Program-made: the position numbers and the translations under genes | DNA from: Marchantia polymorpha subsp. ruderalis | Lineage: Eukaryota > Streptophyta > Marchantiopsida > Marchantiales > Marchantiaceae | DNA length: 64,000 nt | Assembly: GCA_037833965.1 (NCBI GenBank) | Contig: AP031351.1 | Location: 3,608,501 to 3,672,500 of the forward strand | Reading direction: 5' to 3' | Shown here: piece by piece, positions 1,371 through 48,433 of the stretch | How positions within the stretch are numbered: the first letter of the stretch is position 1 | How the letters are laid out: each line of letters starts with the position of its first letter | Notes under the pieces: generated by a model | Database searches by the model: none | Seen by the model: only the letters and a program-made list of their open reading frames with translations | Told to the model about the DNA's origin: nothing

Positions 1371-4300
1371 GTATCAGTGAACGACTTTCAGCTGGTGAAG
1401 AAGATCCATCTCGCTTGCGCGTCAGATGGATCTTCGGTACCAAGTTGCGCAAGCTCAGCACTCGCAAGTGGTGGAAGTGTCTGTCACGTACTTTCGAATA
1501 GACGTGCCATTGTCGCCGCCTGATCCCTCCCTCCCTCCCTCCCTTTGCAGCTACGTTTGCTGGCATCATCATGAAGCCATGAATCCGATCCCATGCACGC
1601 AGTGTAGCATGCTTATGCATCATTCTCCTCCTCCTCCTCTCTCCATCAATCGATCCTCCCTCCCTCCATCATCATCATCCTCTTCTGAGACCCGGGCCTC
1701 CTCTCCTCCGCCATCTCTCTCTCGACGTGCTCTCCCTCTCTTTCAGATCTCTAGATCGTGCCAACCTTCTCTCCTCGCGCCGCCACAAGGCATCAGACCA
1801 TCAATCATCCTCGAAATCAATCAATTAATCAATATCTTTATCTTTCTACTCGTCTCAGTCCCTACATTCCCGCGGCTTCCTGAATACATTCCTTCTCAGG
1901 CAGCCCCAGCAGCATGTCTGGGTCTGTTTGTCAACGAGATATTTTAATCTTGCGCATCCCGATGCGTCCTTTCTTCGGCACCAAATACTGAGCACCCACT
2001 CAGCTCCCTCTTGGACTGCACCTCTTACAGTGAAGTCCACTGCAGCCTCACGGGAGTAGCCGTAGTACACGGGGTCTGAAGAAGCACTCCGCAGAAACTG
2101 CATGAAAATTCGATCCGGTGTCAATTGCAGCTACTTCTTTTGTTCGAGTTGTCCGAGGCGTCCGATTCTCAGCTTTCCCAGAAAGGATTTTCCGCAAGTC
2201 TGCCTGGAGATAAACTGGACTCGAAACAGCGCAAGATTATGTGTATAGTTCTATTTTCCCAATTCTGTCTGCATCGTGAACTGTTCGTTTCTGGGATTGG
2301 AACCTCCAGAAACAGCGGCTCTGCTCTCCACAGTAGGAAGGTCCTGTATTCGTTTGTCTCCGTACGTCCCGATCCTTCTCCTGGGTCGATAAGAATGCAC
2401 AGAATTACGCTGACTTCATGTAATTTGCTCGTCCTGTTGTAGTAAGAAAATGAAACGCGGACGAGGGGGACGAGGGTGCTGGAAGGAACGCAACGAATGT
2501 CGGAGTGTTTTATCGCGTGGCCAGTGGTCAAGGCATCCGTGCTGCACTTGTGGCAGATGGCAAACAAATAAATGCAACTGGATTACTGCCCTGTATTCAC
2601 CACTGTACTGCACTGTACGTGTCCCTCCGCGTCCAGTGTGGAAAATCCTTAAATGATCCCTCCATAATACAATTAACGCAGCATCTGCTCCATGCTGTAC
2701 ACTTCATAATTCTTCTCAAGCATAATATGAAGGACAACGACAATGAAAGACTTCAGCATATAGTACCACTCCCCAGATTCTTTACTCGCTTGAACACAAT
2801 CATCGGCAAGTTTGACAAGTTGACCACAGATCATTTAATGAAAGATGCTTAATTGACAGTGTATTCTCTCTAAGTGGACCCTCGTTAATTGGGAAGGAAT
2901 TTTATAGAAATTCGTGACCTCATGAAATTTGCTGCTCCCGAGTAAGATATGTTACTACGGCTCCACTGCAACTTGAGCATGTGTCCCAGCTTATGAGCAT
3001 GACAGAAACCTCCTCCCTTATCTGCGTTATATGTGTGCAAATAGGAATGTTGGGAACCTCCCGAAAATGCCCATGACTATTGTCATAATGTCGTAAAGGT
3101 TACTAATTGCATTTGGAATCCCGTGTGAGTTGTTTCCATGTGCTGTATATCTTGTTATGAAAATTTCTGTAAACACTAAAAAGCTCTTTGATATATACAT
3201 GTAGAAATAAAACTGTATGTTCAAAGTCAGCATTTCTTGTTTCGAACAAATGGGTTATCGATCCATCGTGGAAGCAATCTGCGACTAGTGGTTGTTGGCC
3301 ACGGTGATACTCCACCGGGAGGACTGTATGGAGCTATGATTGCTCCTCCTTCCAGCGTTACTATCCTTGGACACTCTTCTACTGTCCGAGGAAAGAAAAT
3401 AACATCAGCAGTATATAAGACTCGTTTTGGTCTTGTATCGAAGCTGTCTTATTAAGGAGGGTCCAGTTAAGCACAATTCTTTGATTTTTGTCTTACAATG
3501 ACTCAAAGGTTATTCTTCTTATTTCCATACAAGGGCCAAGTGGACAAAAGTTGGACGGTAATAACCCTCCCCCATCCCCCTTGACAAGCCGTACAATGAA
3601 TTGGTACAAGGGCTAGGCGCCAAGAGCAAATAGTATCACAATGATAATAGCGAATAGGATGACAATGATAATATATGCTACCGGATGCATTACCTTTGTA
3701 TCCATCTTTCTCTCACGATCTTCAGTGATTGCATTAACTTGTTTGGCCAATGAAGCAGTTACTGTACCACGAAAGCAGCACGAGTGCATCTCTTGAGAAT
3801 GTGTTGAATCATTTATACACGTGCACTTTATTCACTTTTTGATGGTTATGCAATCACGAGGACTCGGATATACAGAACTAGCACCAATCAGTAAAACCAA
3901 CGACGTTTGCACCTTTCGAAAAAAACCTGAAGCTTTTCAACTTTTTGCAACGTTAGCAACAGCAAAGCAACTCGTATCTTATCGTAGATATTGCCCCTTT
4001 CATTGTATCTGGAACAGACCACAGCTAGTGAGTGAACTGAATGGTGGCACATAAGATCACAATTTCATTTGCCCACTGTCAAAAGATTTCGTTGTCTGTG
4101 ATTCAAAACGTGATTAGGTAAGCAGGCTCACCTCACCAACTGATTCACAAGACCACACACCAAAGATACAAAAAAACTGTGATATCACTGCTCATGTATA
4201 CGAGCTCACGCTGTAGATTCTCGTACGAAGAGAAGTACAATACACTTCGTGTACTAACTGGCAAGATGCAGACTGTACATGGATATTCCCGATATCAACA

Positions 4301-5218
4301 GAAAAAAGTACACTTTTATTCGTCTACTGTCTTAATGATAAGAGTCTTTTCTGCACGAGTGATCTCCTTGTACAACCGTAATTATACTCAAAAGTAGACG
4401 TTTGACCTCAAAGGAAAGAAGAACACGTGACTGATATTTTTTCGAGGGCAATTCGATGCCTCAGGATCTTCTTTCCGTACTCACATACTGCTCGAAAGCA
4501 AATTTAGACAATAGACTTCAAAAGAAAGAATTACAGATGATCTAGTTATGATGTCTAGCTCTGTGCATCGACGCAGATTGTCCACCCGAGCTTTCGTCGA
4601 CATTATTGGACCTAGTGTAAAGTGAACGCTTCGAATGTAATTGAGCAGGAGCACCAAAATAGAAAGTTCCTGATTTGCTAACTCCAGAAGGTGATTAGAC
4701 TTGAAGATCCCTTCATCAAGATGTACAAGGACATTATTAGATTTTGTCTCTTGAAAATACCCCGTCTGTTCTGGCTACTTTTCTCCTCGTCCACGTGTGA
4801 GTCTATTGACTTTTGGTACAGTACATGCATAGTTTATAATGACGTCCGTCTACCTTTCTTTGCTTAATGGACGGGGATAGAACCATGAGGCATGGATTAA
4901 TCAGATTACATACATCTGGTAGGCTGAGGGTAATTAGACCTAAGGGAGAGATAACTAGACCCACCCTCTAAAACTATCATTCAATGTCATAAATCGCGTA
5001 ATACACCTCGTTTAGATATAGGGTTGAGTACTTGTTAGTTTGCAAAGAAAAATGTGGAGTTAGAGCTAAATCACACTACAGTGAACCTCGCATGTCATTG
5101 GCAAATCAGCTCCCCTCTTTAACAGACGGGAGGGAGTGGCAATTTGATATGTCCTAGGTGGCAAAGACTCTCCACTGCTCCAAACTACCCGGCACTTCCG
5201 TTGGAAATCCGGCTTTTC
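1371..5218. other. Intergenic region, no gene recognised
   Basis: It begins with promoter-like CT-rich sequence, including CCCT repeats around 1526-1545 and CTCC-rich runs near 1625-1680. Short open frames occur on both strands (for example 132 codons on the minus strand at 2169-2567). None shows a recognisable domain, a convincing splice structure or protein-like conservation blocks. I see no RNA gene here. Confidence 0.5.
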
Positions 5219-5551
5219 GGAATTGCTAGGCACACACCCCCATCCACTCGTCCACAAAGCACATTTCTGCGTCAAAACACCAAAAGCTAAACATTTCTGC
5301 GTCGAAACATGCCAGCGCTTCGTCAAACAAGGGAGAAAAGCTGTTTACGGGTCCAATCATGCCGGCGCTTCGGCAAACAAGGCGGTAAAGCAGCAATTTT
5401 TGTTTGGAAGGTACCTAATTGGGAACACGTTCGAACGCGAGTCGAGTTCTGCAAGTGAGACGGCTACTTCTATCGATCTGAGCGTGCTATTAAGGTCACG
5501 GGCGGTCATACCTCTTTTGGGGGGGAGGGGGGGTGTGTGCCTAGCAATTCC
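5219..5551. mobile_element. Short non-autonomous TIR element (MITE-like), 333 bp
   Basis: The ends are perfect inverted repeats of 23 bp: 5219-5241 begins GGAATTGCTAGGCACAC and 5529-5551 is its exact reverse complement. Inside, two 25-bp near-identical copies (5308-5332 and 5358-5382, both with GCGCTTCG and CAAACAAGG cores) are spaced 50 bp apart, and an ATTTCTGCGTC motif also appears twice. No obvious target-site duplication flanks it. There is no credible coding capacity, so it would depend on a transposase encoded elsewhere. The superfamily is not determined. Confidence 0.6.
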
Positions 5552-8500
5552 CTATATCTACTCCACATATACGACTTCTTGGGTTCCTCCTCCAAGTACT
5601 TCTTACCCCTGCATTGCAATTAGTTGAGACCCTACGAAAACTTGGTTTTCTTCTAGCCAGTAGCTTGTTGCCGGCTGCTGCAGGTCGTGTGGTTTGGCAC
5701 TCAATGTATATCACCCTAACATATGTATGGACTCCTAAACTATATCCAGATCTCTAGTAAACATACGATAACTTTGATCAATCACATTTTTTTAGTTCAA
5801 CATCTCATGGATTTTCATTTGTCGAGTAATGAGTATTCTTACTTTGAAACTATTGAAATATCTATCTAACATAAGAGAATTTTACTTCAAACTCTTCTCT
5901 CACTTCGAATGAGAGGAATTGATATTCTATATAACAACTTGTGCTTAAAAAGTGATTCCATTACCTTGAATATATGGGTGTTACCTAGACTTCAATCTTT
6001 CCTTTGAGAGGTAAAGAGAAGTATTATCATCGTTCAAATTAACTTCATAATATTCAAAAACTTTTCAACATCTTCCAAAATTGCATTTGCAAATAATTCA
6101 TTATGTACATGAATAAATTACTCAAGTTTTTTTGTCTAAAAACAGGATTTAATGTTCCGATAGCTTGTGCAATTCAGTTCACTAAATCCTCCATCTTGTT
6201 CATTGTTTACCTATTGATTTTCAATGTAATTATTTTTGTCTTCACGAATCGATATTTGAAGAGCTTAGTGACACGGATTTCCAAGCTTCACTTACATAAC
6301 TCGCAGCATTGAGCAGATCAGTTCAATGTTGACATGCAATTTTAGCAGCACAGTGTCCTAATATCACTCCTACAATCTTTTGTTTGAAGTTTTAACTCCT
6401 CATTCAAATCATAGAAGTTAAAATTATCCTTGGAATAGAATTATTTGGAAAAAATTTCAAAGCTAGGATTATGTTCTTATCGCAAGGTTGTTTACAACTT
6501 ATGAAATTTGGAATAAACAATAGAATACTAACATTGTCGTGTTCAAAAGTCTTAAAATTTTCTTTGTCATTTTAACCGTATGCGGGGAAACTTGCACGTG
6601 CGGTTCTTAGGAGCATTGTGCAATAGAAAAAAACTCAATGTTATTTTTTTTTTACTATGGATGGAAAAATAAACTTATTGAATCACTTCAGCATGTTTCA
6701 ACGATCATCTAAGATTTCATTTGGTTGAATTATGGAACAAAACATTAACTCCTTGATACATGAGTAGTTTCTTGTTGTTATTACTTTCAAATTTTAGTTA
6801 CTATAATATATCTCATCATTGATACTCATTAAGATGGTTTTTAAAAAAAAAAAAACTTGACATTGCAGCCCAATTAGGCGATTAAGAAATGATTCTTCTA
6901 AGATTTTCTTTTTTTGGTTTTTTGACATTGCAGTTTAATGAGACGAATAGGAAGTGATTCCTCTAAGATACACACAATACTTCAAAGTTCAAGTTGGCAT
7001 GTTAGGCTGACGAATATTGTAACAAACGATTTCAAATACTTTGAGTATCAATTATCTTGTACCCAAGATTGGATAAAAGTTAATTAAATGTACTAGTTGA
7101 ATAAATTAGAATTTATTGAAAAGTTTAAATCAGAACAGCAAAATTTTTTACAAAAATTAATATTCATTGATAAAAAAGATTTTTTTGTTATGTACTTGAG
7201 TAACTTGGAGAAAAAATCATTATTAATCCAACAAAATAGAATATTTCATTTTTCTTGTGATAAATTTATCTCATTACATCTACATTGCATGCAACTAATG
7301 TTGATTAGAGATGAAAAACAAATGTCATCAATTGGAACCAGTTTTCTGATTGATTTGTATGACAATAACACATTTTTTTATGTAGATTTTTTACATGCTG
7401 AAATATGCATGCTAAGATATCTACAGGATGTATTTGTATAGAATATACATATTTCATCCCAAAAAATTTTACAAAACTTTGGACTAACCATCAAAAACTT
7501 CTTGGATCGAAATAAATTTATTATGTATTGAATTTGAATTAAATTAAAACATATCGATATTGAGTACAAAAAGATCAATGTATTATTTCTTACATGATTC
7601 TAATTGATATTACACATTAAAAATATAATAGAGAGATTATTGCTTATTTTACCTAGAACAAAAGCAATAAAAAACTTCATATAGAAAACATTGAAGATTT
7701 TTAAAACCTCTAGTTATGATGAATTAAAAACTTAATAATTTTTTAACATCTTTGTGAAAGATTGTGCAGAGAATATCATAACATGTGATATGATATCAAT
7801 ATTATTATCAAATTGTGAAACATATTTTAGCAAACATGTTATCACTACTTCACAAAATCACTAGTTAGTATGTATAAAATTTAGCATTCACATTAAATGA
7901 TTATCTTTGTGTTTTTTTGTATATTTTTCTTCTCAATCTTTGGAAGCTTCTCAATAGTTTGTGTTTTTAGGATATATGTCTATTTGAAAACAATTGAAGA
8001 ATGTACTTTGATTTTTGTTTGCATTTATTTCTGGTTATAAAAAAATTAATTCATACATCAATTTTAATTTTTAAGGATTTATGTTCAGTAATTTCAATAA
8101 TTTGATAAATTTCAAAATCATATGTTTATGGCATATTAATATAGATAATAATACAATATCATAATATTTTGATTGATAAAACACATCAAAATTTACATCC
8201 ATTTTATTTTCTCATGATTTAAATTGAGTGAAGACAATTTAAAAAGTAGATAGTTCATGATTAACATTCAATATTCCAAATCTCAAGATTTTTCATAACA
8301 TATAAATTATTTTAATTGATTTTGATAAAATGATATGAAATAATTTTATTGAAAATATCAATATTTTTTAAATAAAAATTTTAATCTTCTTAAAAACATG
8401 AAAATTTAGTGTTTATCAGGTATTTTTACTCAAAAAAAATATATATACTTGACAAAGAAGTTGAACTATAATCAAATCAAATGTGAAATATTTCAATAAG

Positions 8501-26944: not shown

Positions 26945-29532
26945 TGTGTTTTGATTGCAGAGTTGCAGATGCAGCTATCAAAATTTATGCTGCAACTGGT
27001 AAGAAAATACTGTTGGTACTTGTTTTTCTAGCAACATAGTTATTTTTGATACCAACCATATATTAACATAGTCTTGACTCTATTTGCAGACCACAAACCA
27101 AGCGAGCAGACCACAACATCAACTCTCAATAAGAAGAAGAAGTATGCTGCCTCTGATTTGACAGTGCAAAGGTGGATGGAGAAATATGAGTGGGCTACAT
27201 TGGTAGGCAGGAAAGAAGATGGACATCCCCTCATAAGCTGCTCTATATGCACAGAATCACAAGCCGCAAATAACTTTGCTTCCAAGACCGGCGCTGTTTG
27301 CAAAGATGCAAGTGAGTATATATATTTTTCCAAATCTTCTCATACTTGCTTTTTGCAATAAATATTATAATGTTATATGAATTTTTACATGAATATGATC
27401 TAATGTTTTTTTATGTAGACTATGTAAGCGATGATGCTTCATCGATAAAGCATAAGGCAGCTGCGTCAAAAGTAAAGCAACGGCAAGGGTTTAAGAAGAG
27501 CAGAGCAATAGCTGTGTCTCATTCACAAGCGGCAACAAATAAATTTTTGCACACAGCATTTTCTCTAACGCTTCTAGTTGTCTTAGAGAATTTGCCCATT
27601 TTAAAATGGACTGTTTTATTAGGATGAGTAAGCAAATCCTTCCAATGCATGCACTACATCATGTGGGTTATACTTTCATTCAAAATTGTTGGTTTTCAAG
27701 ACTAGTGAAGTATGTAACGATATATTTTCATCTGTGTGCCAATGCAGTTACCTTGTTTGGTTGGGGCATCCATGCATTAACCGGAAGTATAACCAGAAGC
27801 GTTACTTTTGGTCATTCCTTTCGGTGATCAGTGAAAGCCTTCTAGCATCACAGTTGGCTAGGGTAGCTTCTAGTGCTTTCTATTCTGTCTTACTAGACAA
27901 TTCTAACGACATCGGCAACGAGGATCACTGTTTGATATTTCTCAGGTGATCTCTCTTCATTCAAAGAAATATTGCAGAAAATTGTGTTAAAATGTAGTTG
28001 GCAATATTGATGAATCATTAACCATGTTGTGTTGGTAATTGTATAAATTAGGTACTGGGATGGTGATATTTGGATGCCACGATCGAAGTTCTTGTGCGCC
28101 GTTAGTTTGGGTGATAAATCAGCCGAAGGGATGTGTCAGATGCTATGTGCGGTGTTAAATGTCTTTGATATCCCAATATCAAAGATGGCGGCTATTTGTA
28201 CTGACGGTGACTCCACACTAATTAGTAGATACAATGGGTTGGGCGCAAAGTTGCGAAAAACTGTGGGTTATCTTTTGAGTGTTCATTGCGCAGCGCACAA
28301 GACTGCCCTAGCCCTTGAAGACACAGCCAAGGAAATGGAAGATCTTCAAGAGTTGGACGTTGTTCTAAAGGCGGTGCATAATCTGTTTAGCAAATAAGGA
28401 TCTCGTCAAATGCAATGGACACGCTTTGCTAGGAGGCGAGGTGTGTCCAAACTACAATATCCATTATTCAATGCCACTATGCGGTTTTCCAGAGCTCAAT
28501 GTGTGGGAGCATTACAAGAGAATTTAGTAACGCTGATTTTGTTTTTGAAGAGAAACTCAGGCAAGAAGGGTTGGGAGAAAGTTGCAGATTTACTTAAGTC
28601 TCTCACTGATGTCACTTTCATCTGCCTACTGCATAGTGTTGCTGATGTATTGAAACCCTTAGAGGAATTTAGGAAAATATTTTGAGCAAGACAACAACCT
28701 ACCTCATAAAATTCCTCGTCGACTTGAGGTGTGTTTGTTTGCTCTGAGATATATATGTGGCTCCGAGTATCGGGTTGGTGGTGATAAATTGAAACAGTTT
28801 TTAAAATCTGTTCAAGAGAATGGGACCACAAAGGGTCTAATTTGGCATGTCAATGAGAGTTGTAGGATTCCTTTGATATGTCATCCTGGTTTCAGTGTGG
28901 AACACGTCTATATGTTCATCAAGGTGCTTGTGGAAGAAATTGAGTCAAACCTTTTGGAATGCTTTCCCGATGGAGATGTGGTTAGTGCCTTCAAAATTTT
29001 TGATCCTACATTTTATAGAAGCCTAAAGCAGTCAGAGCTTGATAAATTTGGTGTCTTAGATTACAAAATTCTGTTGAGCCATTTTTGCAACAGGACAAAG
29101 AGAGAGCAGCTGTTCCCAATTGCCCCGTCCGTATTGTCTCAGGTCAACAAAGAGTTTTCGAAGATGAAGCAACTGTTGTGGTTAGTAGCCAAGAATCCGC
29201 ATGCAGAGTTTCTTCTCGTCTGGAGGAACATTCATGATGAGCATGGGCTGGGGCTAGGCTACATGTTTAAATTTGTGTATCTTTGTCTAGTCATCCCCCT
29301 CAATAGTGCCATTGCCGAACGAGGTTTTTCTTTGCACAATAGTATTAAAACCAAGCTTAGAAATAAGCTGTGTATCAAAACAATTGATACACTCATTACG
29401 ACCAAGACTTTGGCGAAGTCTTTGGAGAATTTCGATTATTTACAACTAGAGGAACTGTATCATAATACTCAGAACTTCAAGTTGCCATCATTATTCCAAG
29501 CTCTAAATGCCCTTGATTATGATGGGAACTGA
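26945..29532 (+). pseudogene. hAT transposase (ZNF862-like lineage), interrupted
   Basis: An N-terminal exon ending KIYAAT joins through GTAAGA...TTTGCAG to DHKPSEQTTTS. A zinc-finger-like segment follows (RWMEKYEW, ISCSICTESQ; 27074-27312), then HKAAASKVKQRQ. The core catalytic region shows LLDNSNDIGNE, FLRYWDGD, AICTDGDSTLIS and LLSVHCAAHKTALALED (28074-28397), typical of this hAT lineage. The C-terminal dimerisation domain contains LNSAIAERGFSLHNSIKTKL (about 29310-29370). In-frame stops near 28396 and a frameshift near 28683 (the reading continues as EQDNNLPHKIPRRLEV in another frame) break the gene. An intron could explain one interruption, but together they suggest inactivity. It would normally cut and paste CAGGG-ended elements in the nucleus. 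Confidence 0.82.
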
Positions 29533-43499: not shown

Positions 43500-45221
43500 A
43501 TGCAACCTTGTCACATCATGAGCGGAAATTAGTATTACATGTTGAAATTGTAGATTTATCAAACTAAAGATAAGTTACATACTATGTTAAATGATATCTT
43601 CTTCAATAGATGAAGAGAATATAAATATAAATAATTTAATAACATAAAAAATCTTAAAATATGCCGTAATTGATTTTCAATATATAGATACATGATCTTC
43701 CAATGTAAATATTTTGGTAATTTGTAACATTTAATTTGAAGTATTTGAACATTTTATCATGCAACTTACCTGCATCTTAAATAACATAATAGAATATAAC
43801 GATATTATAAGCTGTTTAACATGTTGACATAATATGAATTACCATAACAAATTTCAATTATATAATTAATATATATTCATATATTTCAATTATACAATTA
43901 TATTTCAATTATATTTTAATTATTAATTTTTTTAGTAAAAATAATTTTAAAAAATCATTTGAATTGAAATATAAACAAAAAATTGATTATAGTTATTGAA
44001 AAATATTTGTTTGTAGAATTCAGCTCTCATATATAAGATAAATAGGATAGAAGAAAATCATACATTCAAAGAGTGTCATTTAAATGAATATATATTGATG
44101 ATGTGAAGAATTATAGACTATGAAAATATAACATATAAGATTATTGTAAATTAGTTAATTTTTTTATGAATCTAGTTCATAAGAAAACAAGATTGTTCAA
44201 GCTCTTCAAACTAACGAAGACAAATTTACAGTCATGATTTTTGTCTGAAATTTTTTTAATAAAAAATAAGAATTGTAAGTCACTATCGATGATTCTCAAA
44301 ATATTTCACCATATAGTAGAAAATAATAGAAATTGGGCAAGCAAGTCATTGTTAATGAAACTCAAAATATTCACACAAAAAAATAGACCAAGATCATCTC
44401 CTAGGAGATTATCAAACTCATATCAATGAAGCTTTCAAAAGACATAAAATTTAGATTGATTCATTTATTATTATAATTATGAAATTGGAACTGAAATTAA
44501 TGATAAAAATGCATTGATCTTATATTTAAATAAAAACTTGATCTTAATTTTGTTTATAAACTTGAGTCAAGTATTGTTATCAAGCGCAAACTATAATCAC
44601 GGATTGATAACTAGACATGAACTCTATAAGAATTTTCAAAAGATGAACTTATGATTTATAGTAATTGGATATACAAGCTGATGTACAATCAAACAGATGA
44701 CCAATGACAACAAGAAGAGCAATTTCAAAGCCAAGTTGGTGAATGGGAATCTTACGTAAAATAAAACTCTGGATTGGAACTAGAAGTTTCTCACTTGTAA
44801 CAAAATATGTTACAAATCTATTGAACTAATCACTTGCTACAATGTTCATTTTGGTAATTTGGTTTTCGCATAAGATGTATGTAATCACAACATTTAATTA
44901 CAAATATTTAAATTATGAAATTTACATAAAATAGCCACTTAAATTTAAATGACAAGTTAAAAAATGGTTGATATGTAGATTGTTGAAATCATTGTAAGTG
45001 TTTAATTAAACTCATATATATTGCAATGTAAGGTATGATGAGTTCATCAAATCACAACAATTTTCACAAAATAAATATGATCTATGCACATGAAGAATAC
45101 GTTGTATAATCAAATTTGTAATCCCATTTTTCTAGTAATTTATGTGTGATGATGCATTTGAAAGTTGTGAAGCAAATTTTCATGAAGTTCAATTTTCAGA
45201 AAAATTAGTAAATATTATCCC
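43500..45221. other. AT-rich island, left part
   Basis: Very AT-rich with many homopolymer runs and no recognisable coding sequence apart from the polymerase remnant that begins after a C10 tract at about 45222-45231. Confidence 0.5.
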
Positions 45222-45227
45222 CCCCCC

Positions 45228-45760
45228 CCCTTGTTTGGGAGAAAGCGCAGAGCGAAAAAAGAAAAAGGACCCGGAGCTCATGTTATGCTCATATCACAAG
45301 GACATTTGTCTGTTTTAGCATTAGCCATGAAGATTTTTCGCTCTAACTATTATGCTAAAAGTTACTTCTTGGAGAAGACCTTGGAAGCCCAATTTCTAAG
45401 AAAGGTTTATTATGGTGGACATACGTATGTTTACAAGCCTTATGGCGAGAATCTGTATGTATTCCTTGTATACTTTTTCGACGAAAAAAAATGTCCGGTG
45501 GTAAGCGGACCGATGATCGAAGCCAGCACCAAAGGGAAGAACGTTCTTTTGGAGGCTAATATAGAATGCCCCTAATATTTCAATAGGCCTTTTCTACCAT
45601 TCAGGCTCCCTCAGCTAAAGTACCTTATTTTTCCTACCGGCAACTGGAAGGGTACTTATTATTCAAAAAAACTAAAATACGCAAAAAGCCTGGGGGTATA
45701 ACATAAATCTCTTAAGAGGTTATGTATTCGATGAAAGCACATTTTGGATTTTGTGAAATG
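45228..45760 (+). pseudogene. Family-B DNA polymerase remnant of mitochondrial-plasmid type
   Basis: The open stretch 45231-45575 contains LSVLALAMKIFRSNYY followed by YYGGHTYVYKPYGENLY. This matches the block before motif A in protein-primed family-B polymerases of linear mitochondrial plasmids (typically SLAlkiFr..., YYGGR.EVFKPYG.NLYYYD). The expected YDvNSLYP motif is degraded to FFDEKKCP. After a stop at 45573, similarity resumes as RPFLPFRLPQ, LIFPTGNWKGTYYSKKLKYA (family: PLLPYR, YPTGTWTGWYFSEEL) and then GYVFDESTF. So about 180 residues of a polymerase of perhaps 800-1000 remain, with stops and a lost catalytic motif. Flanks are AT-rich. It is probably plasmid DNA that reached the nucleus, directly or through mitochondria. 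Confidence 0.75.
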
Positions 45761-48433
45761 ATCTTTCAGCTCCACAAACCCAGCGCTTGAAATTTTTTTT
45801 AAAAATCGCTGAAATTTTCATAATGCTTTGTTGATGTTGTTTATGGAAAAAATCTGGATAATAAAAAATCTATGACAACATATATGTTTGCATTTGATAT
45901 TGGATGTGTTAATCAGAATTTTAATTTAGAGATGTGTATAGCTTAGTGATCTACATAATCAAAATATATGAAGAAAATCAAAGCAACTAAAAATACTAAT
46001 TGGGAGAATAGACTCATCATTGATTTTTTTCATTAAGATGAAAACAATAAAGGATGTTATACATCTTCATCTTGATAGTAAAAGTGTATCACATCTTATA
46101 AAAGATTGAATCATAAAAAAATGAAAAAATATATTAAAATTAAATCCCAATTTATTATCTATATAAATTTCGGAAATAAAACTCAAACTAGTCAATATTA
46201 ACTATCAACTCATTGTAATTTATCATTGATAAAAACCGTTTTTTGAAAAATATTAGCAAACGTTGTCTATTTTACACTAATTAACTCCTACTCATAATGA
46301 TAATGTTGTCATGCACAAAAGTCACGTTCAAACTTCGAACTGAAATTTGATTGATGTATCATGTTAGGTTGTAAAATGTTCAAATTCATTCCAACAAATA
46401 ATAATGTTTATGCTATCAAAATAAATGGAGTAACAATAAGTTAGAATACAGATAAATTATCCACAGATCAGTCATAATTTTATTGTAAGGATATATTATA
46501 ATCCATAACAAATATGCTCTCTGTATGTTTTAGTTACATGATGAGTTGTTATTATCCATGAGTTGCAGTCATGAACATGTACCTGAGTTAACCCATATTT
46601 TGGCATTAGCATGTTTGCTACAAATTTTTGTGACATAGATCAACTTCTACACACCACAAATTAGTTCTTAAGTTCAAACTTTAGTCAGCGTGAATAACCG
46701 ATAGAATGTTCACAAAACAATTTGTACTGCAATGAGACACAAAATAGTGACGATGTAGGAATTAACACACTGAAACTGCTATAGTGATCATAAGTGAAAC
46801 TGCAAAACCTTTATGTCTATGCTATATCTCAGCTCATTGAGCTCTATGCATATTACGGATGAACGTAACCTTAAATATCTCTTTGTATAGGCGATTAAAT
46901 ACGATTTTTGAACTACCTTTGTTGAAAAAGAAAGGTAACTGGAAAAGTGAAATACTTCCTTCCTTTCTTGCTGAAAATATGTCATGATTGTACAGAAAAC
47001 CTGCAAATGAATATGTATTCATCAAAGAAAACCAAGAGGTGACTTCTGAAAGATTCTACGAAAATGGCTTACGAGACGAGCACAAGTACTCGGGATGTAC
47101 CTTGGGGCTATATGCATGCATATATGTTCATTTTATTAACTTTCGGAATCTAGAGTTGGAACAATCCAAATTTGTTGTGATTTACATGTACATTTACAAC
47201 ATTTACTACATGGCACTGAAGAGTGGTAGTCTGAGTTAAGTATTATTCATGCTCCTGCATTGTCAAATCTGAACAGCAAGGTAACTGGTGATATCTGTCA
47301 AATATGAACACAAATATACGTGCTCATATCCAACATATTCAAAGTTCGAAAAATCAGCATCCAAGTTCCATTTGACTGACTCGTACCTGATGCAAAGCAA
47401 AATATCCTAGGGTATGAGGTAGGGTAGGGTAGACACTGTGCAAACATTTGATGTTTCCGCCCACGTATCTAGCGAGGAAGAAGGGAATGGAGTGGACAAA
47501 GCTCGTTGAGTCATAATTCCTACTAAAGATATGTCAGACCAAAATTTTGAAAGATTTACAATCGGCAAGTTTTAAGTTTACCCCTTATCGTAGCGTTTTC
47601 AAGGGTTCATAACGTGAAACAGTAGATTGTGTCAACGAGAATTACGAATCTTGAAACCGGCTTCAAAGACCTGAATAGGACAAATGCATAAGATATCCTG
47701 AAATCTTTAACTACCAACTCCACCGGAACCATTAAGAAATTCCTTCAAACTTGAGAACAATGATCGATGTAAACTCTCGCAGTGAATTAGAACAATCTCA
47801 GGATTGCTTCAAATAACTTTTCTACGAGTGTCCACCTAAAAACTTGGCACTGCAAAGCTGAGATTTGAGAGGAGCCCAGTACAACAAGGACCGGAGTTAC
47901 TCCTTGTAAGTACCTACATTACTCTTGGAAAAAAACAAGAGGCAACACCTTTCTGCATGGCTTCCATCATAAGAAAATAAACAGTCAACTCTTATCTTGC
48001 CCTCCTAATCAGAAGTACCACCGAACTTCGAAATGATCAAGCACAAATTGAATTCGTCTGCAAGATTCTCACATACAAGTAGCTAGAAGAAAGAAATATG
48101 GTTACAACCAATTTCTTTCATACTCCCCATCTCCTCTCAACTGCGACAGCACACTCTAAGTACTTCAAGGACATATGAAAAAGCGCGGTTACTTTTGAAC
48201 GTGTACATTTCAAGAGTAAATGATGCATTCTTGAAGCAAAAAACTGTCATTTGGCCAATGGGTGGCATGCACAAATTAACATCCATGTAGTAAGCGGATA
48301 CTTCTTCCTTCAGTAACAAAGAACTGTTATTACAAACAATTTCGTTCGACACCGTCTCTGATATGACAGCGCAATCTGGCTCATAAATTACCCCATTAAA
48401 ACAAAACTTTTCTTCATAGGAGATTAAACCACT
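45761..48433. other. AT-rich island, then DNL gene 3' flank; no gene recognised
   Basis: Sequence to about 47200 stays AT-rich without recognisable genes. From about 47300 composition rises and the last few hundred bases probably contain the 3' UTR of the DNL zinc-ribbon gene. A short (AGGGT)n-like run occurs near 47420. Confidence 0.4.

What the first reader, a model, noticed from the sequence alone, without database searches (positions are those of the whole stretch)
45228..45760. Mitochondrial-plasmid-type DNA polymerase remnant in the nucleus
Motifs YYGGHTYVYKPYGENLY and LIFPTGNWKGTYYSKKL mark a protein-primed family-B polymerase of linear mitochondrial plasmids. It sits in an AT-rich island after a C10 tract. 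Integration of such plasmids into plant nuclear DNA is rarely described in bryophytes and hints at a past or present linear plasmid.
Basis: partly seen in the sequence, partly recalled or inferred. Interest (0 to 1): 0.72.

Follow-up and report, generated by a model that had tools for sequence, protein, structure and literature searches.

The report
Nuclear scrap of liverwort mitochondrial DNA
A half-kilobase scrap of a broken DNA-polymerase gene, of a kind already known from liverwort mitochondrial DNA, sits in a plant chromosome and looks like ordinary organelle-derived debris, with more than a dozen similar scraps elsewhere in the same genome.

Summary
[quoted passage not shown]). The block (left edge 45231-45267, right edge 45790; about 39% GC) lies in 16-28% GC sequence on a 31.6 Mb contig.

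Plasmid integration as such is not supported. The genome holds 13 other fragments of the block (32-213 window bases, scattered ends, none full length). One lies in a patchwork with pieces resembling bacterial-type SSU rRNA, a group II intron, a reverse transcriptase and plastid rpoA. The rpoA-like and SSU rRNA pieces recur at similar and higher density, so the polymerase piece shows no special mobility.

Remnants of such a gene in Marchantia mtDNA were reported in 1995 (reference seen), and nuclear and/or mitochondrial copies in liverworts in 2023 (PMC10583447).

Best reading: a decayed nuclear mitochondrial DNA fragment (NUMT) whose polymerase was probably already dead in the mitochondrion. 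Low interest. The donor mitochondrial genome was not available, so that link rests on literature.

The parts
45219..45230 (+). C12 tract at the left edge of the block
   Evidence: 45219-45300 as a query found only itself
45231..45266 (+). left edge of uncertain origin: GC-richer than the flank, no clear counterpart found in the other copies
45267..45790 (+). organelle-derived block (NUMT), fragments of which recur elsewhere in the genome; right breakpoint at 45790
45276..45575 (+). polymerase piece 1 (PF03175 profile 180-235), open up to a stop at its end; lacks a short stretch at about 45460 that copies L010 and L135 carry, about where motif A of the family is expected (motif position recalled)
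45579..45701 (+). polymerase piece 2 (PF03175 profile 290-331), in the same frame as piece 1, ending in a stop
45702..45790 (+). tail of the block, frame broken; aligns without gaps to copy L009; no Pfam match on its own
44600..45218 (.). left flank: AT-rich; the part up to about 45158 resembles a decayed dispersed nuclear repeat (40 other scored matches, 64-83% identity)
45791..46400 (.). right flank: AT-rich, 3 other weak matches (71-73%)

Best explanation
The block is a NUMT: a roughly 0.5 kb fragment of liverwort (probably Marchantia-type) mitochondrial DNA that was joined into AT-rich nuclear DNA, most likely by double-strand-break repair, and then decayed. [quoted passage not shown] Shown: the polymerase homology, the nuclear setting, the many short copies, and the mixture with other organelle-type pieces around one copy. 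Inferred: the mitochondrion as immediate donor, end joining as the mechanism, the organism's identity, and that the gene was already broken before transfer.
For: PF03175 matches. 13 other fragmentary copies on seven contigs, 81-100% identical, with scattered ends, together covering 486 of 504 bases of 45287-45790; at least four further fragments match sequence adjoining the polymerase piece in L013. Two other copies (L009, L138) share about 93 more bases past 45790, so the donor seems longer than the window copy. L013 joins a polymerase piece to SSU rRNA, group II intron, RT-like and plastid rpoA-like pieces, and none of the 28 other matches to its stretch 5045-5420 crosses query borders near 100 and 244 by more than 7 bases. 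Density: 13 other matches for the 581-base block, 4 within the 237 bases of the rpoA-like piece, 45 for 395 bases of the SSU rRNA piece, some in tandem. L009 and the window copy align without gaps over 45658-45790 and so share the broken frame there. Literature: title of Weber 1995 (references); PMC10583447; mosaic mitochondrial-plastid insertions are a described kind (PMC6215612, search listing only).
Against: No mitochondrial genome of this plant was on hand, so the donor was not seen. The genome-wide family searches did not complete. The link to mtDNA rather than to a free plasmid rests on literature and on the company in one locus, L013; Rfam scans of 12 other copy loci and of the window found nothing at gathering score, and tRNA scans of 13 loci found none. 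That the SSU rRNA piece is mitochondrial, not plastid, is only suggested. The density controls come from one hand-picked locus. L009 and L138 could descend from one nuclear copy.
Confidence: 0.85

Rival explanations
1. Direct nuclear integration of a linear mitochondrial plasmid, or of its fragments, without passing through the main mitochondrial genome.
For: The polymerase is of the type that such plasmids encode; plasmid sequences in plant nuclear and/or mitochondrial genomes are reported. Fragments need not keep plasmid ends.
Against: Copies have scattered ends and no excess over an rpoA-like and an SSU rRNA piece; one copy lies among other organelle-type pieces; no inverted repeat over 19 bases in 44700-46300.
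Confidence: 0.08
2. Relic of a nuclear Polinton/Maverick or another virus-like element with a protein-primed polymerase.
For: PF03175 is described as organellar and viral, so the match alone does not decide.
Against: Copies are 32-213 window bases with scattered ends, one embedded in organelle-type debris. No Polinton-type domain in the few other window proteins scanned (2, 4), which is a weak test.
Confidence: 0.02
3. Chance resemblance.
For: Each Pfam match is below the curated cut-off.
Against: Two collinear separate matches on one strand.
Confidence: 0.01

Closest known systems
[quoted passage not shown] title seen as a reference, paper not read)
   Same: Broken plasmid-type polymerase gene of a liverwort mitochondrion; the likely source.
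   Different: The window copy is in a nuclear contig; no base-level comparison could be made.
Mosaic nuclear organelle insertions, numts and nupts (PMC6215612 and PMC7037861, search listing only)
   Same: Pieces of mitochondrial and plastid type joined in nuclear DNA, as in locus L013.
   Different: The window block looks like a single fragment; its left 36 bases are of unknown origin.
Plant mitochondrial linear plasmids (PMC10583447, parts 1 and 2 of 3 read)
   Same: Polymerase family; sequences found in liverwort nuclear and/or mitochondrial genomes.
   Different: No terminal inverted repeats and no intact gene found here.

Membership tests
[quoted passage not shown]
   Two collinear pieces, E 1.2e-5 and 6.4e-3, each under the curated cut-off
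[quoted passage not shown]
   In-frame stops and a stretch near 45460 missing relative to L010 and L135; motif position recalled
Linear mitochondrial plasmid | Terminal inverted repeats | tested here: not met
   44700-46300 holds only inverted pairs of 12-19 bases; a fragment would not be expected to keep them
Linear mitochondrial plasmid | Second gene, usually RNA polymerase (per PMC10583447) | tested here: inconclusive
   No long open frame beside the block; not every frame was scanned against Pfam
NUMT | Lies in nuclear chromosome sequence | tested here: met
   31.6 Mb contig; dispersed repeat on the left; GDA1/CD39 and ROH1-like/BPS1 proteins in the window
NUMT | Matches the organism's mitochondrial genome | not testable with these tools
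   No mitochondrial genome held; supported by literature only
NUMT | Short fragments with scattered ends, in part mixed with other organelle-type pieces | tested here: met
   the mixture was shown for one copy locus (L013)
Polinton/Maverick | Integrase, packaging ATPase or capsid genes around the polymerase | tested here: inconclusive
   None in the few other window proteins scanned

The most novel reading that the evidence does not exclude
A free linear plasmid still lives, or lived recently, in this plant's mitochondria and seeds nuclear copies on its own, alongside a dead relic in the main mitochondrial genome.
Probability: 0.04. Interest if true: 0.5.

Novelty: new member of a known kind. 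Interest (0 to 1): 0.12.

Why it matters
Little on its own. It adds a nuclear copy to a story already told (fungal-type plasmid, to plant mitochondrion, to nucleus). The separate nuclear fragments could serve as a fossil record of the mitochondrial relic: damage shared by independent copies should date from the mitochondrion, private damage from the nucleus.

Tried and rejected
Linear plasmid integration was rejected as the main reading because of scattered ends, no long inverted repeats nearby, and no excess over other organelle-type pieces. Relatives in viral contigs by protein: 6 pattern matches, none confirmed; by a 27-base word: none. A 14-base word matched 119 stretches, which I take for chance because the word is short; none was examined. 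Plasmid records by tblastn: 3 records, E 2 or higher; phages: none. PDB: four unrelated sequences. A 26-residue tail piece gave no Pfam match, so a frame change near 45696 is my reading of the frames, not a profile result. Organelle RNA genes near the other copies: none in 12 loci by Rfam, no tRNA in 13 loci. The SSU rRNA piece of L013: the highest bit scores among the 20 of 527 records listed were alphaproteobacterial, over 45% of the query; cyanobacterial sequences were not compared. A control that turned out weaker than planned: the 291-base stretch beginning with the intron piece gave 22 other matches, but 19 of these start at or after query 83, mostly outside the Rfam intron match (query 22-96), in sequence that I did not identify; likewise 11 of the 15 other matches lie in its first 161 bases, outside the rpoA-like piece. 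Only the 4 within that piece are counted.

Full report
What is there. The frame with the two quoted motifs is real and lies on the + strand. Piece 45276-45575 matches PF03175 (DNA polymerase type B, organellar and viral) at E 1.2e-5, profile 180-235, and piece 45579-45701 at E 0.0064, profile 290-331. Both are under the curated cut-off, as short broken pieces may be, but order, strand and spacing agree. The frame is broken by a stop at the end of each piece and by further stops in the tail.

Where it sits. The block is about 39% GC (45200-45800); 100-base windows of the flanks run at 16-28% GC. It lies at about 3.65 Mb on a 31.6 Mb contig of a 241 Mb, nine-contig assembly. The left flank up to about 45158 resembles a decayed dispersed repeat: 40 other scored matches, 64-83% identical, of 115 candidates; the right flank has 3 weak matches. 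Elsewhere the window encodes a GDA1/CD39 protein and a ROH1-like/BPS1 protein. The assembly shape and the literature fit a Marchantia-type liverwort, but the species is my inference.

Copies. A search of the same genome with 45220-45800 gave 14 matches: the window itself and 13 fragments, on C2, C3, C5, C6, C7, C8 and C9. They span 32 to 213 window bases, start and stop at scattered places and together cover 486 of the 504 bases of 45287-45790; the 18 bases missed are 45640-45657. A search with L013:5045-5420 added four more fragments (on C4 twice and C7 twice) that match the part adjoining the polymerase piece. L009 and L138 share about 93 bases past 45790 (88% over 156 bases), where the window copy stops; beyond that L009 meets a dispersed repeat near L009:3044 (39 other matches of 79 candidates, 40 scored). 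Copies L010 and L135 hold a short stretch near 45460, and L013 and L139 hold extra bases near 45276-45289, that the window copy lacks, so the window copy seems to have losses of its own. In contrast L009 and the window copy align without a gap over 45658-45790 and so share the broken frame there, although their ends differ; this suggests, without proving it, that the gene was already broken in the donor.

Company. Locus L013 (C2:2286000-2295900) holds one polymerase copy together with a piece of bacterial-type SSU rRNA and a group II intron piece, an RT-like piece (PF00078, E 9.7e-5, under cut-off) and a plastid rpoA-like piece (PF03118, E 1.8e-6, over cut-off; the plastid origin is inferred). 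Searching with L013:5045-5420 gave 29 matches, the query included; the 28 others fall into three groups, and none crosses the borders near query 100 and 244 by more than 7 bases. This is what is expected when organelle fragments are joined end to end. On C4 a polymerase-adjoining match (7558654-7558712) and a match to the intron-bearing stretch (7558916-7558960) lie about 200 bases apart, a possible second mosaic. Against this, 12 other copy loci gave no Rfam match at gathering score, so the mosaic is shown for one locus only.

Is the polymerase piece special? The 581-base block has 13 other matches. The rpoA-like piece (237 bases) has 4, and the 395-base SSU rRNA piece has 45, some in tandem arrays and clusters. 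Per base the polymerase block is close to the first and well below the second. The tool says such counts are lower bounds and the controls come from one hand-picked locus, so this only shows no sign of excess. A third control proved unfit (see Tried and rejected).

Literature. [quoted passage not shown] Passages of PMC9744193 and PMC4814812 cite Weber et al. [quoted passage not shown] that paper was not read. Mosaic mitochondrial-plastid insertions with end-joining evidence are described in PMC6215612 (search listing only).

Mechanism. Most likely a plasmid-type polymerase gene entered the mitochondrial genome long ago and decayed; fragments of that DNA reached the nucleus, were joined at breaks, at least once with plastid-type fragments, and decayed further. 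Shown here are the homology, the nuclear setting, the copies and one mosaic. The donor and the end-joining step are inferred. I give this 0.85.

Noticed in passing
L013 (G000:C2:2286000-2295900), about 2900-6740: Patchwork of organelle-type pieces (RT-like, rpoA-like, group II intron, polymerase, SSU rRNA) in one nuclear locus.
   Followed up: partly
G000:C7:6741073-6741811 and 6731831-6732221: The SSU rRNA piece recurs head to tail with a period of about 130 bases, as if an organelle fragment had been amplified into a small nuclear tandem array.
   Followed up: no
window 6576-6611: A 36-base, 94% identical match to the intron-bearing stretch of L013, possibly another tiny organelle fragment in the window (G000:C2:3615076-3615111).
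   Followed up: no
window 45219-45230: C12 tract directly at the left edge of the block, the only C or G run of 9 or more in the window.
   Followed up: partly
window 28663-29532: Open frame of 289 codons that looks to me like the end of a hAT-type transposase (recalled resemblance; no Pfam match at E 0.01).
   Followed up: partly
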